DNA of 64,000 nucleotides from Galbibacter orientalis DSM 19592 (GTDB lineage: Bacteria > Bacteroidota > Bacteroidia > Flavobacteriales > Flavobacteriaceae). How positions within the stretch are numbered: the stretch's first letter is position 1; each line of letters opens with the position of its first letter. This document shows positions 53,444 through 59,782 of this stretch, piece by piece. The translations under genes and the position numbers were made by a program. The notes beneath the pieces are model-generated. The model made no database searches and was not told the DNA's origin. It worked only from the letters and a program-made list of their open reading frames with translations. Location of the stretch: assembly GCF_000260115.1 (NCBI RefSeq), contig NZ_JH651379.1, positions 1,240,001-1,304,000 on the forward strand. The letters are read 5' to 3'.

Positions 53444-54052
53444 TTATAAAGAATATTGAAGTCCGAAGGTTAATGTTTCTTGATTTTTTAGTTGAATACC
53501 ATTCATGTTTTGATAGATAGGAAGCGCTGCTTCAAAACCAAAACGTAAATTTTTCAAACTTCCTTTAAAGGCATATAAGTTGAAGCCTATACCTGCTTCT
53601 GCATATGTTTTTCCACTGTTTGCAGTGTCTGCTGTTACAACCATCATCGGATTTAAATCTGGATTCTCACCTTCTATTTTTCCGAGAGATGCCCACTTTA
53701 TACGCCCAGAAAAGCTAAACCATTGGTTAACAGGCATTGATATCCAGTTATTAATGCTGTATTCGTTTCCTAAGCGGTATTCGTTATCATTTTCTCCAAA
53801 ACGGAAAACCCCTTTAATTTGTGACCCAAACGATAGGCGTTCCCATTGTTTTAAATAAGTAAGTCCTAAGTTGGTATCAAAAGTGCCGCTTCCAATTTGC
53901 ATGGGGTAAGGTAGAATTGTTTCGTTTGGAGCAGACATTGGAGTAATGTCTTTTTTGTCTATGCTTCCTGTTGGCAATGAAACACCTACTTGAGCATGTA
54001 ATTGCTGACTATTTTTATTGAAAAATGTATACAGAGCTACAAGTTTAAGGTC
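53444..54052 (-). pseudogene. Outer-membrane transporter-like gene lacking its 5' end
   Basis: The last 203 codons (DLKLVALYTFFNKNSQQLH... GVSLPTGSIDKKD... to LTFGLQYSL) of a beta-barrel protein of the 'transporter' type found beside metal TonB receptors. The frame runs upstream to 54052 without a suitable start and then meets a stop inside tRNA-derived sequence. The N-terminal part, with signal peptide, has been replaced by the junction with the mobile element. Confidence 0.75.
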
Positions 54053-54096
54053 TCATAACCCGAAGGTCACTGGTTCGAGTCCAGTTCCCGCTACTA
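54052..54096 (+). other. 3' half of tRNA-Met(CAU): element attachment site
   Basis: CTCATAACCC (anticodon loop with CAT at 54054-54056), the T-arm GGTTCGAGTCC, and acceptor strand TCCCGCT plus A are those of a Met-CAU (initiator-like) tRNA. The 5' half (acceptor, D-arm, first anticodon-stem strand) is absent and replaced by coding sequence of the truncated transporter. This matches the att core of a tyrosine integrase that uses the tRNA 3' end. Confidence 0.75.
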
Positions 54097-54104
54097 GGAA
54101 AAAC

Positions 54105-56266: not shown

Positions 56267-57265
56267 ATGGGAAAGTTACCTAAGAATATTCAGTTGCGAT
56301 ACCGTGTCATTGATCGTTTACTTAGAGATTATGATACCGTTAAAACAACCATGATAATTGATAAAATATTTGAAAGGCATGATATTTCAGTTGGCAAAAC
56401 TACAATTCAGAAGGACATAAGAAATATGATGATGGATTATCATGCTCCTATAGAATATGATAATTCAAAAAAGGCCTACTATTATCCCGAAAACGTAGAT
56501 GAAATTTTTCCAATTATAGAATTGTTAAATGAAGAAATTGATGCCTTGCTCTTTTACTTTAAAACCATAAATCAATATAGAGACTATCCCATATTCACGG
56601 AAATATCTATGACCACAAAGAAAGTTATAGATTCATCAAACATTCCATTGAAAACTAAAGAGCTTTTTGAACAAGATACTTTACTGGAAACGGAAAGACA
56701 TCCTTTAATACCAGGTCTAGGACTAATCACTGGATTGCTTGAAAGTATTGCAAATCAAAATATAATTGAAGTTAATTATAGACGCCATAATAAAGATCCA
56801 AAGAAGCATTTAATTAAACCGCTATTATTAAAGGAAGACAAATTATTATGGTATTTAATTGGAATCAATATTAAATATGATAGCTTGATAACTTTTGGAT
56901 TAGATAGGATAATTAGTTTTAAGAATACTGGTGAAGATTTTGAGAAAATTGAATTTGATAGCCAAGAATATTTTAAACATTCTTTCGGGGTGACTGTTAC
57001 GGATGAAGACCCTATTGAAGTGATTATTTCTTTTAATTCAAGACAGGGACATTATCTTAAAACGCTTCCCATTCACAACACACAGGAGATAATTGAAGAG
57101 AACTCAGAGTTTTTAATCATTAAAGTTATGGTAAAACCATCTTATGAATTCTACTCAAAAATTCTTAGTTATGGTTCGGATGCTAAAATAATATCTCCAA
57201 AGTCTGTTATAGATAAGGTGATAGACACCTTAAATAAAGCCAAAGACCAATACCTATCTCCATAA
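56267..57265 (+). CDS. WYL-domain transcriptional regulator
   Basis: 332-residue regulator: an N-terminal helix-turn-helix (MIIDKIFERHDISVGKTTIQKDIRNMM) and a WYL domain that literally contains WYLIG (IIEVNYRRH...LIKPLLLKEDKLLWYLIG), then a WCX-like C-terminus. WYL proteins often control defence loci, as BrxR and CapW do. It may regulate the nuclease gene it is coupled to, the ubiquitin-like operon downstream, or both. A terminator separates it from the latter. Confidence 0.9.
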   Translation: MGKLPKNIQLRYRVIDRLLRDYDTVKTTMIIDKIFERHDISVGKTTIQKDIRNMMMDYHAPIEYDNSKKAYYYPENVDEIFPIIELLNEEIDALLFYFKTINQYRDYPIFTEISMTTKKVIDSSNIPLKTKELFEQDTLLETERHPLIPGLGLITGLLESIANQNIIEVNYRRHNKDPKKHLIKPLLLKEDKLLWYLIGINIKYDSLITFGLDRIISFKNTGEDFEKIEFDSQEYFKHSFGVTVTDEDPIEVIISFNSRQGHYLKTLPIHNTQEIIEENSEFLIIKVMVKPSYEFYSKILSYGSDAKIISPKSVIDKVIDTLNKAKDQYLSP

Positions 57266-57290: not shown

Positions 57291-57327
57291 CATGGCGCAC
57301 TTAGATTGCGCCATGTGGTTGTTTTTT
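57291..57327 (+). terminator. Terminator between WYL gene and ubiquitin-like operon
   Basis: CATGGCGCA...TGCGCCATG, a perfect 9-bp stem with 7-base loop, followed by TGGTTGTTTTTTT. It isolates the next operon, which must have its own promoter within about 40 bases (57328-57366). Confidence 0.85.
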
Positions 57328-57366: not shown

Positions 57367-57639
57367 ATGAAGAAAGAAAAAATAACCATAAAGGTTCTGA
57401 TAGAGAATGACAGAATCTATGTAGATGATTACAATGCCAACCAGAAAGTTCAGGTAATTGTAAATAAAACTTTAGCAAATCTTAATATAACAGCTGAAGG
57501 GAGAGAGCTTCGTCACGAGGATGGAGAGCCTATTACTGACTTTTCAAAAACAATTGAAGAAGCCAATATCCAAGATGGAGAATGCCTCCGATTTGTTAAA
57601 AAAAGCACCAAGCCTGACAGAGATAAAGGTTTTGCATAA
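57367..57639 (+). CDS. Ubiquitin-like modifier (single beta-grasp domain)
   Basis: 90 residues with a beta-grasp pattern: KEKITIKVLIENDRIYVDDY forms the first hairpin, then a helix (VIVNKTLANLNI), EGRELRHEDGEPITDFSKTIEEANIQDGECLRFVKK. It resembles the Multi_ubiq-type modifiers that sit next to E1/E2 genes. The C-terminus is RDKGFA, so removal of Phe-Ala would expose a glycine as in ubiquitin. The stop overlaps the E2-E1 start by one base (TAATG). It would be activated by that fusion and processed or removed by the JAMM peptidase. Confidence 0.82.
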   Translation: MKKEKITIKVLIENDRIYVDDYNANQKVQVIVNKTLANLNITAEGRELRHEDGEPITDFSKTIEEANIQDGECLRFVKKSTKPDRDKGFA

Positions 57640-59324
57640 TGGAAACATTTTTATGGCACGAAAAGGAAGCTTTAAAAAACCTTTACGAGAGTGAAATTGA
57701 TATTCTAAAAAGGGGGCTAAAAGGAGATTTTAAGTTATTCAAATTATTTGATCCAGCTACAACAGATGGTAGAATTGTTGCAGTTGGAGAACTTTCATTT
57801 GGGAATAATCAGAAGCAAGATTTGCAAATTATTTTTCCAACGAAATATCCTTTTGCTCCCCCAAAACTCATTTCAGTTAATACTCAAAGGGATAATGACG
57901 GTAATTTAATTGAAGGTATTCAGCCTAAACATTTCAATAAAGGAAACCAATACAATGATGCTTCTTTATGTCTTTTTGAGAAAGAATTATGGAATAAAGA
58001 AGAACATAATATTGCTTGGACTTTAAGAAGGGCTCAAAAATGGTTAGTCAGAGCTAATTCTCCAGAAGGGTTTTCTAAAGAAGAAATAATTGAAGAGTAC
58101 CCTGCTATCATGCCACATTTGGGGCAAGTGCTTTTACCAAAAAGCATAGAACTCCCAAAAGGCTCTAATTCAGGACAGTTTGTTTTGACACAATTCAAGC
58201 CGAATCATTATATCCTAGAGCAAAATGTTTTAAGTAAGACTCCATTTACTTTAAGCATTAATAAAGAGGTTTTTAATTGGTTTGCCTTTGATAAAAAGTT
58301 GACACAAAAAGAACTCCTTTCAAATATTAATGCACAGGCTTTTATTAATATTCTATCCAAATATTTTGGTGTAAATCTTGCAGACTTAGAAACTAAGAAT
58401 CTTGCATTTTATTTACCGGCAGAAGAAAATCCATGGTACTTTTTCAAATTTAACTTACAACAGGTTAATGGCCAATTAATAATTAGTAACCCTATTTATT
58501 ATATCTCTAGAACGATAAGTAATGAACTCTATTTAAGGAGCAAAGATATTTTTGATGATAAAATATTAATAAACAAAAACGTTACGATTATTGGTGTTGG
58601 TGCTATTGGCAGTGAAGTTGCAAAATCATTAGCTAAAAATGGTGTAGGTAATTTTAATCTATTTGATATAGATACTTTTGAAATTGGAAACTCCATTAGG
58701 CATGCTGCTGACTTATACTATATTGGAGAGAAAAAAGTAGAGGTAGTAAAGCAATTAATATTAAGGTCTAATCCCAATATTTCTGTAAATGCCTATCATC
58801 AAGATGTGCTGAACGATAATGGTTTGCTTGAATCTGCATTAAGTAAAAGTGATTTATGTATTGTTTTAACTGCTGAGGATTCCGTCGATTATTTAATTAA
58901 TGATAATTACATTAAAAATTTTAATTATCCATTTGTATTTGCACGAGCTTCAACAGGAGCGTTCTCCGGAGCCATTCAAGTGGTAGATTCTGATAGTGCA
59001 TGTTTAAGATGCCTAAGCTTGGAAGGAATCGATGTATTACCTCAACCTAAAAGCAAAGTCAATTTTTCAGAATTGAAACGAGAATACGGAAGTTGTTCTA
59101 GTCCTGCATTGCCTGGTTCTGAAATCGATACGAAAGAAATAGCTCTACAAGTTGCTAGGGTTGCTATACAATGCTTAATGCATAATGAAAGTTCCAATTA
59201 CCCAAAACTTGCCCACAAACTGCTTTTTTGGCATGGTCCGTATGGGTCTAAAAATCGTAAGCCTTTCACTTGGGAAATGAAAAACCATGAAAAATCCAAA
59301 TCTTGTAAGTTATGCAATCCATAA
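57639..59324 (+). CDS. E2-E1 fusion for ubiquitin-like conjugation (Cap2-like)
   Basis: 561 residues. The N-terminal E2 (UBC-fold) domain, about 1-150, contains IIFPTKYPFAPPKL, His98 and the catalytic Cys111 in NDASLCLF. After a linker domain, the ThiF/E1 adenylation domain (about 305-561) has the nucleotide loop GVGAIGSE (319-326), FDIDTFEIGNSIRH, a probable transfer Cys486 in YGSCSSPALPG, and two CxxC pairs (455/458 and 556/559) for zinc. This is the Cap2 architecture of type II CBASS, but no CD-NTase is adjacent. The JAMM gene overlaps its end by 13 bases. Confidence 0.9.
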   Translation: METFLWHEKEALKNLYESEIDILKRGLKGDFKLFKLFDPATTDGRIVAVGELSFGNNQKQDLQIIFPTKYPFAPPKLISVNTQRDNDGNLIEGIQPKHFNKGNQYNDASLCLFEKELWNKEEHNIAWTLRRAQKWLVRANSPEGFSKEEIIEEYPAIMPHLGQVLLPKSIELPKGSNSGQFVLTQFKPNHYILEQNVLSKTPFTLSINKEVFNWFAFDKKLTQKELLSNINAQAFINILSKYFGVNLADLETKNLAFYLPAEENPWYFFKFNLQQVNGQLIISNPIYYISRTISNELYLRSKDIFDDKILINKNVTIIGVGAIGSEVAKSLAKNGVGNFNLFDIDTFEIGNSIRHAADLYYIGEKKVEVVKQLILRSNPNISVNAYHQDVLNDNGLLESALSKSDLCIVLTAEDSVDYLINDNYIKNFNYPFVFARASTGAFSGAIQVVDSDSACLRCLSLEGIDVLPQPKSKVNFSELKREYGSCSSPALPGSEIDTKEIALQVARVAIQCLMHNESSNYPKLAHKLLFWHGPYGSKNRKPFTWEMKNHEKSKSCKLCNP

Positions 59325-59782
59325 AGAAGGTTCATTATAAAAAACAAGCGATTGAAATGTTTCAATCCGAAATTGAAAAATTTGAAGGCTTGGAATCCGG
59401 CGGTGTGCTTATAGGTCATTTGGAAGATGATGTGTTAATAATAGACAAGGCTTCAAACGGAGGACCAAATGCAGTCCATGAAGAGTTTTATTTCAGAGCC
59501 GATCCTAATTATATTGATATGTTTATCGATATGGAAATCGCTAATTCTGATTGTAAATTACGATATATAGGCGAATGGCACACGCATCCACAAATAGACC
59601 CTACTCCCAGTGATTTAGATTTACAATCTCTAAATGAAATATCTGAATCATCTGGAGATTTTTGTATATTATTAATTATAGGGGCTATTAATTTTCAGCC
59701 AAAATTCTTTTCTAAACAAGCGATCTCAATTATTAAACATGTTAAAGAGCGTAAGTTCTACCTACTCAAGTTAAATCCTTAA
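59312..59782 (+). CDS. JAMM/Mov34 metallopeptidase (deubiquitinase-like, Cap3/BilD-type)
   Basis: 156-residue zinc isopeptidase. The JAMM motif is complete: Glu28 (LESGGVLIG), His90-x-His92, Ser100 and Asp103 (HTHPQIDPTPSDLD). It would trim the modifier precursor after Gly88 and/or remove it from targets. It starts inside the E2-E1 gene and closes the operon. Confidence 0.92.
   Translation: MQSIKKVHYKKQAIEMFQSEIEKFEGLESGGVLIGHLEDDVLIIDKASNGGPNAVHEEFYFRADPNYIDMFIDMEIANSDCKLRYIGEWHTHPQIDPTPSDLDLQSLNEISESSGDFCILLIIGAINFQPKFFSKQAISIIKHVKERKFYLLKLNP

What the first reader, a model, noticed from the sequence alone, without database searches (positions are those of the whole stretch)
57367..59782. 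Three-gene ubiquitin-like conjugation operon: free modifier, E2-E1 fusion, JAMM peptidase, without CD-NTase
The three genes overlap (1 and 13 bases) behind their own terminator-isolated promoter. They encode a beta-grasp modifier, a fused E2 (Cys111) and E1 (GVGAIG loop, Cys486, two CxxC pairs), and a complete JAMM peptidase. Known relatives: type II CBASS uses a Cap2 E2-E1 fusion with Cap3, but its conjugated protein is the CD-NTase itself; Bil systems use a free modifier but separate E1 and E2 genes. This operon combines the Cap2-like fused enzyme with a free modifier. Its place in a mobile element next to a nuclease and a WYL regulator suggests anti-phage defence (inference).
Basis: partly seen in the sequence, partly recalled or inferred. 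Interest (0 to 1): 0.92.

Follow-up and report, generated by a model that had tools for sequence, protein, structure and literature searches.

The report
Three-gene bacterial ubiquitin-like tagging operon
A mobile DNA element in a Bacteroidota bacterium carries a compact ubiquitin-like protein-tagging system that pairs a free-standing tag protein with a fused enzyme of the kind best known from a different anti-virus pathway, and the same three genes were found in two other, distant bacteria.

Summary
Window 57367-59782 encodes a 90-aa ubiquitin-like modifier, an E2-E1 fusion (C111, GVGAIG, C486, two CxxC) and a complete JAMM peptidase, overlapping by 1 and 13 bases, behind a hairpin. The trio recurs in two distant Bacteroidota (modifier/fusion/JAMM identity 67/64/53% and 52/55/47%), with no CD-NTase beside any copy. 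It seems rare. On an E1 tree the three form one clade (100/100) apart from the sampled CBASS, 6A-MBL, '6c' and separate-E2 rows; the branching between groups is unresolved.
New here: (1) all three modifiers end KPDRDKGFA, conserved at protein level; of 560 distinct ORFs of 90+ aa in fetched DNA only five end GFA: these three and two CD-NTases just upstream of Cap2. (2) Upstream regulators differ: WYL in two loci, in G364 a pair resembling CapK/CapS behind a type IIG R-M gene; CapW, CapK and CapS are published DNA-damage controllers of such operons. (3) The window's element also carries BrxL, PglZ, AbiE and an integrase.
Best reading: reversible conjugation of a beta-grasp modifier by a Cap2-like enzyme, probably antiphage: a new variant of a known kind. 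Function is inferred, fold models were poor, and the defining Bub papers could not be read.

The parts
56267..57265 (+). WYL-WCX regulator (CapW/BrxR-like by architecture), likely controller of the operon
   Evidence: Pfam WYL 2.6e-8, WCX 1.9e-8; 41% identical homologue at the same place in L009; an N-terminal HTH is read by eye only
57291..57315 (+). hairpin followed by T-rich sequence between WYL and Ubl: likely terminator; could also be a regulator site (inference)
   Evidence: L009 has a hairpin of other sequence at the same place, with 9-bp outer arms 7 nt apart by eye (the fold pairs further in), and L003 has a hairpin plus T-run
57367..57639 (+). 90-aa ubiquitin-like modifier (DUF2604/YukD-like)
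57610..57636 (+). codons for the invariant tail KPDRDKGFA; predicted conjugation end (Ala90, or Gly88 after trimming)
57639..59324 (+). 561-aa E2-linker-E1 fusion (Cap2-like architecture)
57969..57971 (+). codon of predicted E2 catalytic Cys111
58593..58610 (+). E1 nucleotide-binding loop GVGAIG (residues 319-324)
59094..59096 (+). codon of predicted E1 Cys486
59312..59782 (+). 156-aa JAMM/JAB isopeptidase (Cap3-like)
   Evidence: Pfam Prok-JAB 3.4e-10; PADLOC JAB 7.1e-26; NCBIfam Cap3 model 54.2 bits against a cut-off of 200; motif invariant in three copies

Best explanation
A self-contained reversible ubiquitin-like conjugation system. The E1 half adenylates the tail of the small beta-grasp modifier and passes it through E1 Cys486 and E2 Cys111 of the same polypeptide to lysines of a target; no E3 gene is evident in the operon. 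The JAMM peptidase cleaves the bond. Because the tail ends -GFA like some CD-NTases encoded beside Cap2, I think the terminal Ala90 is the joined residue (about 3:2 over trimming to Gly88; lowered from 2:1 on rereading that only the last residue is conserved in cGAS tails). A WYL repressor, or in another host a CapK/CapS-like pair, switches the operon on during DNA damage or phage infection. Shown by sequence: the domains, motifs, gene order and recurrence. Inferred: catalysis, the joined residue, the target, the regulation and the antiphage role.
For: The trio is intact in three diverged genomes. Catalytic residues are invariant and align with Cap2-like enzymes. The tail KPDRDKGFA is kept with synonymous codon changes in 3 of 3, also where the genes do not overlap (L003). 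Of 560 distinct ORFs of at least 90 aa (both strands) in 55 held sequences, 5 end in GFA: the three modifiers and two CD-NTases just upstream of Cap2 genes. Nine of 9 proteins read upstream of Cap2-type genes on plasmids end in Gly or Ala (7 of the 9 are annotated as nucleotidyltransferases), against 95 of 560 ORFs in general. PMC10097602 (passages): the last residue of 1,583 cGAS proteins of Cap2/Cap3 operons is highly conserved as Gly or Ala, and the E. cloacae cGAS ending in Ala was conjugated. Defence context: BrxL, PglZ, a second WYL, AbiE and an integrase on the same element; type IIG R-M, AbiEi and Fic beside the trio in G364. Regulators: PMC13373217 (section 7 and passages).
Against: No experiment. 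Both AlphaFold models are poor (pLDDT 54 and 43.6). The residues before the last vary in cGAS tails (PMC10097602), so GFA is not a general Cap2 signal; only 2 of 9 upstream proteins read end in GFA, and 1 of 3 further upstream ORFs ends in Lys (L043). The Cap2 proteins next to the two GFA-tailed CD-NTases lack C486 and the CxxC pairs and are not the trio's nearest kin, so the shared tail may be coincidence. CapK assignment is by eye: the 288-aa protein has no relevant Pfam match up to E 10, no PDB match up to E 1 and only a weak PADLOC match, to DrmA (8.9e-4); PADLOC matches the other protein only in its winged helix, to CasR and CARF3 models among others. A JAMM pre-processes the Bil modifier (PMC11354881 passage), which would fit cutting after Gly88. 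Bub operons have no shown antiphage effect. L009 lies between apparent housekeeping genes (by eye), not in an evident defence island.
Confidence: 0.55

Rival explanations
1. Same system, but with classical processing: the JAMM peptidase removes Phe89-Ala90, and Gly88 is the residue adenylated and conjugated, as in Bil and eukaryotic ubiquitin.
For: A conserved Gly third from the end and a JAMM in the operon; BilC is reported to expose BilA's C-terminal Gly (PMC11354881 passage).
Against: The residues that would be cut off, FA, are as conserved as the Gly, and the same GFA end occurs on two CD-NTases next to Cap2 genes.
Confidence: 0.27
2. A DNA-damage or stress pathway of the host, not an antiphage system; the mobile element carries it as cargo.
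For: L009 sits between apparent housekeeping genes (by eye); the authors of PMC13373217 say Bub operons may mediate more global stress responses.
Against: Other defence-type genes share the element or locus in 2 of 3 cases.
Confidence: 0.17
3. A derivative of type II CBASS whose CD-NTase is supplied in trans.
For: Cap2-like architecture (first Foldseek match 7to3_A, from a poor model); -GFA tail.
Against: No SMODS match in the own genome or G364. The one match in L009's genome lies on another contig, and its tail ends in neither Gly nor Ala. The fusion's best PADLOC E1-E2 matches are 99, 86 and 115 bits and lie over the E1 half, against 642 and 672 bits over the full length for two Cap2s from CBASS loci.
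Confidence: 0.03
4. A sulfur-carrier or small-molecule pathway (ThiS/MoaD, MccB-like) rather than protein conjugation.
For: The E1 half matches ThiF, MoeB and MccB.
Against: A fused E2-like domain with conserved Cys and a JAMM gene; no sulfurtransferase or biosynthetic partner was noticed by eye in the three loci.
Confidence: 0.04

Closest known systems
Type II CBASS Cap2/Cap3
   Same: E2-linker-E1 fusion followed by a JAMM gene; first structural match of the fusion is Cap2 7to3 over its length, but from a poor model and with TM-score 0.24; protein encoded just upstream with a Gly/Ala end in 9 of 9 plasmid loci read, GFA in 2
   Different: Upstream protein is a 90-aa ubiquitin-like protein, not a CD-NTase; sequence match to CBASS E1-E2 models lies over the E1 half
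Bil (BilABCD)
   Same: Free ubiquitin-like modifier, E1, E2 and JAMM; the BilA homologue in L027 also matches DUF2604
   Different: BilA has two Ubl domains and E1 and E2 are separate proteins (PMC11354881 passage); the trio's modifier matches no PADLOC family up to E 1, BilA included
Bub operons (Gong 2025, Ye 2026; not readable here)
   Same: Putative immune Ubl operons controlled by CapW, CapH+CapP or CapK+CapS (PMC13373217)
   Different: Gene make-up could not be checked here; recalled as having separate E1 and E2
Type 6c operons of Iyer et al. 2006 (pNGR234a)
   Same: E2-E1 fusion plus JAMM (PMC1779556 section 14; L035)
   Different: E1 in another clade; the small upstream ORF is Pro/Gly-rich, not ubiquitin-like
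6A-MBL system
   Same: E2, E1 and JAB domains; the NCBIfam model matches the E1 and JAMM parts below its cut-off
   Different: One E2-E1-JAB polypeptide with a metallo-beta-lactamase-fold partner; other E1 clade

Membership tests
Type II CBASS | CD-NTase gene in the operon | tested here: not met
   none seen in the window or the two homologous loci; SMODS absent from the own genome and G364; other CD-NTase models not searched genome-wide
Type II CBASS | Cap2 full-length E2-E1 profile | tested here: not met
   PADLOC E1-E2 best 98.9, 86.0 and 114.6 bits, over the E1 half; two Cap2s from CBASS loci 672 and 642 bits over the full length
Type II CBASS | E1 inside a CBASS clade | tested here: inconclusive
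   trio is one clade (100/100) apart from both sampled CBASS groups, but the branching between groups is unresolved
Bil | BilA two-domain modifier | tested here: not met
   90 aa, one domain; no PADLOC match up to E 1
Bil | separate E1 and E2 genes | tested here: not met
   one fusion of 543-561 aa in 3 of 3 loci
Bub | Bub protein set (Gong 2025, Ye 2026) | not testable with these tools
   papers not held
Ubiquitin-like modifier (beta-grasp) | sequence membership in a Ubl family | tested here: met
   DUF2604 29.8 bits against cut-off 25 for the window protein; DUF2604 and YukD match 3 of 3 members at E up to 1, YukD below its cut-off for the window protein
Ubiquitin-like modifier (beta-grasp) | beta-grasp fold | tested here: inconclusive
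   AlphaFold pLDDT 54; Foldseek: nothing at E <= 0.001, first three ranks are phage baseplate or injection-device proteins, then Ufm1, ubiquitin, SUMO and bacterial Ubl complexes among others; profile against PDB sequences: designed ubiquitin E 0.21, BilA E 0.53
JAMM/JAB isopeptidase | E-xn-HxH-x7-SxxD zinc motif | tested here: met
   E28, H90, H92, S100, D103 invariant in three copies
E2 (UBC-like) | E2 domain with catalytic Cys | tested here: inconclusive
   C111 on a Cys in 14 of 14 fusions; UQ_con 7.6e-4 and Prok-E2_B 0.0045 for the L003 protein, RWD 0.0073 for the window protein, each below the curated cut-off

The most novel reading that the evidence does not exclude
The Cap2-type E2-E1 fusion is a cargo-agnostic tail-conjugation machine. 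In CBASS it joins a CD-NTase, in this trio a beta-grasp ubiquitin-like protein wearing a CD-NTase-like -GFA tail joined through alanine, and in the '6c' relatives a Pro/Gly-rich, probably unstructured peptide ending in -VG. The trio would then be a separate class of bacterial ubiquitin-like pathway, and a missing link between CBASS and Bil.
Probability: 0.33. Interest if true: 0.85.

Novelty: new variant of a known kind. Interest (0 to 1): 0.63.

Why it matters
Reviews of which I read passages treat the bacterial fused enzyme Cap2 as acting on a non-ubiquitin cargo (PMC12355090) and name Bil and Bub as examples of complete Ubl pathways (PMC12687455). A three-gene pathway in which the fused enzyme comes with a true ubiquitin-like modifier would show that cargo and enzyme type are exchangeable. 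It gives direct tests: which tail residue is joined, and whether one enzyme type can serve unrelated cargos.

Tried and rejected
Led nowhere or weak. (a) AlphaFold with three-row alignments gave poor models; Foldseek on them is reported only as consistent. (b) The DUF2604 genome search missed the window's own genome, a failed positive control, so its tally (4 of 395, all below the cut-off) says nothing about frequency. (c) Viral contigs gave no relative with the single fusion or with alignment A1 and no match to the tail as a DNA pattern; in plasmids (320 records) and phages (6 records) no match covered 80% of the fusion, and plasmids held no match to the modifier. (d) hhalign of the modifier profile with one BilA homologue failed (probability near 0). 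(e) The sigma-70 scan was at chance and the terminator scan near it. (f) One search had no genome known to match, so its 0 of 98 shows little. (g) The genome-contig scan uses exact peptide patterns of one protein and finds close relatives only.

Considered and rejected: a CD-NTase just outside; tail conservation as a by-product of gene overlap (in L003 the genes do not overlap and codons differ synonymously). First tree: of 23 rows 3 had no domain found by my motif rule and 2 were misplaced (L032, L034), so it was redone with 22 rows (L027 dropped as a very long branch). The L009 JAMM row began one residue after its Met. Tail counts leave out L040 (its upstream ORF looks split between frames), L042 and L043, whose ends I read, and L041, whose upstream gene was not held.

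Papers. Read: outline, section 14 and figure/table text (parts 1 and 3 of 3) of PMC1779556; section 7 and passages of PMC13373217; passages of PMC11354881, PMC12687455, PMC12355090, PMC11153139, PMC10097602. Not held: Chambers 2024, Gong 2025, Ye 2026, Burroughs 2011, Ledvina 2023. A full-text search for DUF2604 found 0 papers. I make no other claim that something is not in print.
Full report
Observation. The 90-aa protein matches DUF2604 above Pfam's cut-off (29.8 against 25 bits), the 561-aa protein ThiF (2.1e-26), and the 156-aa protein Prok-JAB (3.4e-10). The N-terminal half of the fusion is hardly recognised by Pfam in the window copy (RWD, E 0.0073), but the L003 copy matches UQ_con (7.6e-4) and Prok-E2_B (0.0045), below their cut-offs. 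The predicted helix, four-strand meander and helix order is that of an E2, in a low-confidence model. In an alignment of 14 fusions (3 trio, 4 '6c', 7 CBASS-type) C111 falls on a Cys in 14 of 14 and C486 in 12 of 14.

Recurrence. One locus came from the genome collection (L009, a Paludibacter MAG) and one from a phylum sample (G364, another class of the phylum). Both hold the complete trio in the same order. Identity to the window is 67/64/53% in L009 and 52/55/47% in L003 for modifier/fusion/JAMM. The trio looks rare. In the phylum sample 7 of 395 genomes matched at E 1e-15 or better, but only the own genome and G364 over the full length, the other five over the E1 part. The class sample gave the own genome and one E1-only match of 395, and G364's class G364 alone of 244. 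A further class gave 0 of 98, without a positive control. The samples overlap, and only the best few candidates per genome were scored. In L009 WYL plus trio lies between genes that look like housekeeping genes by eye.

Modifier and tail. DUF2604 and YukD match all three modifiers at E up to 1. DUF2604 also matches, above its cut-off, the second domain of a protein that PADLOC calls BilA at 145 bits (L027). So the modifier lies in ubiquitin-like sequence space, even though AlphaFold with three rows failed (pLDDT 54) and searches of solved structures gave nothing significant. All three end in KPDRDKGFA, with synonymous codon differences, and in L003 the modifier and fusion genes do not overlap, so the protein itself is conserved. 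The proteins encoded just upstream of nine Cap2-type genes on plasmids all end in Gly or Ala, two in GFA and a third in RFA. Seven of these nine are annotated as nucleotidyltransferases; L049 is called hypothetical and L050 CobQ. Three further upstream ORFs, read less carefully, end in GA (L040), SA (L042) and SAK (L043). Of 560 distinct ORFs of at least 90 aa in held DNA, both strands and chance ORFs included, five end in GFA: the three modifiers and the two CD-NTases of L031 and L038; 95 end in Gly or Ala. PMC10097602 (passages) reports the last residue of cGAS in Cap2/Cap3 operons as highly conserved Gly or Ala, the residues before it as variable, and conjugation of an E. cloacae cGAS that ends in Ala. 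I therefore lean to Ala90 as the joined residue; Gly88 after trimming is a close rival.

Enzyme kinship. On a 22-row E1 tree the trio is one clade (100/100). The '6c' (100/99), 6A-MBL (100/100) and separate-E2 (95/92) sets each form another. CBASS splits in two, though one CBASS clade is not rejected (AU p 0.099). The branching between groups is unresolved. By path and by profile the nearest E1s are those of separate-E2 operons (L034, L024). PADLOC's E1-E2 models match the trio best at 99, 86 and 115 bits over the E1 half, against 642 and 672 bits over the full length for two Cap2s from CBASS loci. The low-confidence model still finds Cap2 7to3 first, over its length but with TM-score 0.24. 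The architecture is thus Cap2-like while the sequence family is separate.

Regulators. The window and L009 have homologous WYL-WCX proteins (41% identical) upstream of the trio, with a hairpin of different sequence in between; hairpins in all three loci fold better than shuffles (z -2.9, -5.4, -3.4). In G364 the place is taken by a 200-aa protein with a C-terminal winged helix (HTH_24 1.4e-5; PADLOC CasR and CARF3 models match that part) and a 288-aa protein in which I read STAS- and GHKL-like motifs by eye (no relevant Pfam match; weak PADLOC DrmA match). They lie just downstream of a type IIG restriction-modification gene that is split into two ORFs. PMC13373217 (section 7 and passages) reports capK always followed by capS, 88 of 443 pairs immediately downstream of an R-M system, 348 of 443 followed by a known or predicted immune operon (CBASS, Bil and Bub among them), and CapW, a WYL protein, as another DNA-damage-responsive controller of Bub operons. 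The G364 CapK-like protein lacks the N-terminal HTH of published CapK. The paper gives Ser54 as the phosphosite of E. roggenkampii CapS; the G364 protein has a serine at 53, in what I read by eye as the matching motif.

Element. The window's trio lies in a segment of about 27.3 kb whose likely ends carry a 23-bp direct repeat (window 54143 and L021:17481). It holds a DUF2779 protein, WYL, the trio, DUF932 and RadC, an SSB-like ORF (by eye), a DUF5712 protein (relaxase by recall), a T4SS coupling protein, a second WYL, BrxL, AbiEi/AbiEii and a tyrosine integrase, PglZ, and two ORFs that I read as an IS21-type pair by eye.

Mechanism and limits. Domain content and invariant residues make reversible conjugation of the modifier the natural reading. 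Shared loci with defence genes in 2 of 3 cases and regulators of the kind used by other immune operons make an antiphage or anti-element role likely. Target, joined residue and phenotype are not shown. I could not read the papers that define Bub or the 2011 survey of prokaryotic ubiquitin systems, so priority is open. Verdict: a real, recurrent, apparently uncommon system and a new variant of a known kind, with one bolder generalisation (a cargo-agnostic Cap2-type enzyme) worth testing.

Noticed in passing
L029, L030, L035, L036, L044, L045, L046, L047: ORF directly upstream of the E2-E1 gene: In 8 of 8 '6c' plasmid loci read (of 12 records; L044 and L047 have the same peptide) a small Pro/Gly/His-rich, probably unstructured ORF lies just upstream of the E2-E1 fusion; 7 of 8 end exactly in VG, the eighth in VGQQ. 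Candidate non-beta-grasp modifiers; 7 of 8 are not in the incomplete PLSDB gene table.
   Followed up: partly
L021:3010-9514 (own genome, downstream of the window): WYL regulator, BrxL (937 bits), PglZ (737 bits) and an AAA ATPase next to an IS21-like pair (by eye) on the same element: a BREX-like fragment.
   Followed up: partly
L021:14209-16042: AbiEi/AbiEii-type toxin-antitoxin pair beside the tyrosine integrase.
   Followed up: no
window 53444-53977 (-) and L021:17594-18010 (-): Two ORFs that look like the two halves of one outer-membrane-type protein gene split by the element; described by eye only.
   Followed up: no
window about 54055-54097: A stretch that looks by eye like the 3' part of a tRNA gene; ARAGORN and an Rfam scan do not confirm it.
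   Followed up: partly
L027:6668-9514 (genome G126): A Bil-type locus with BilA and BilB by PADLOC, plus JAB-like and E1-like ORFs (by eye); BilA's second domain matches DUF2604.
   Followed up: partly
L054 (genome G541, another contig than L009): A SMODS nucleotidyltransferase ORF with tail NFHGND, next to an E2-like small ORF and an HNH-like ORF (both by eye): perhaps a separate short CBASS-like locus.
   Followed up: partly
L009:11592-12386 (-): A patatin-like ORF (by eye) 1.4 kb downstream of the JAMM on the opposite strand; patatins serve as CBASS effectors elsewhere, here probably unrelated.
   Followed up: no
   Followed up: no
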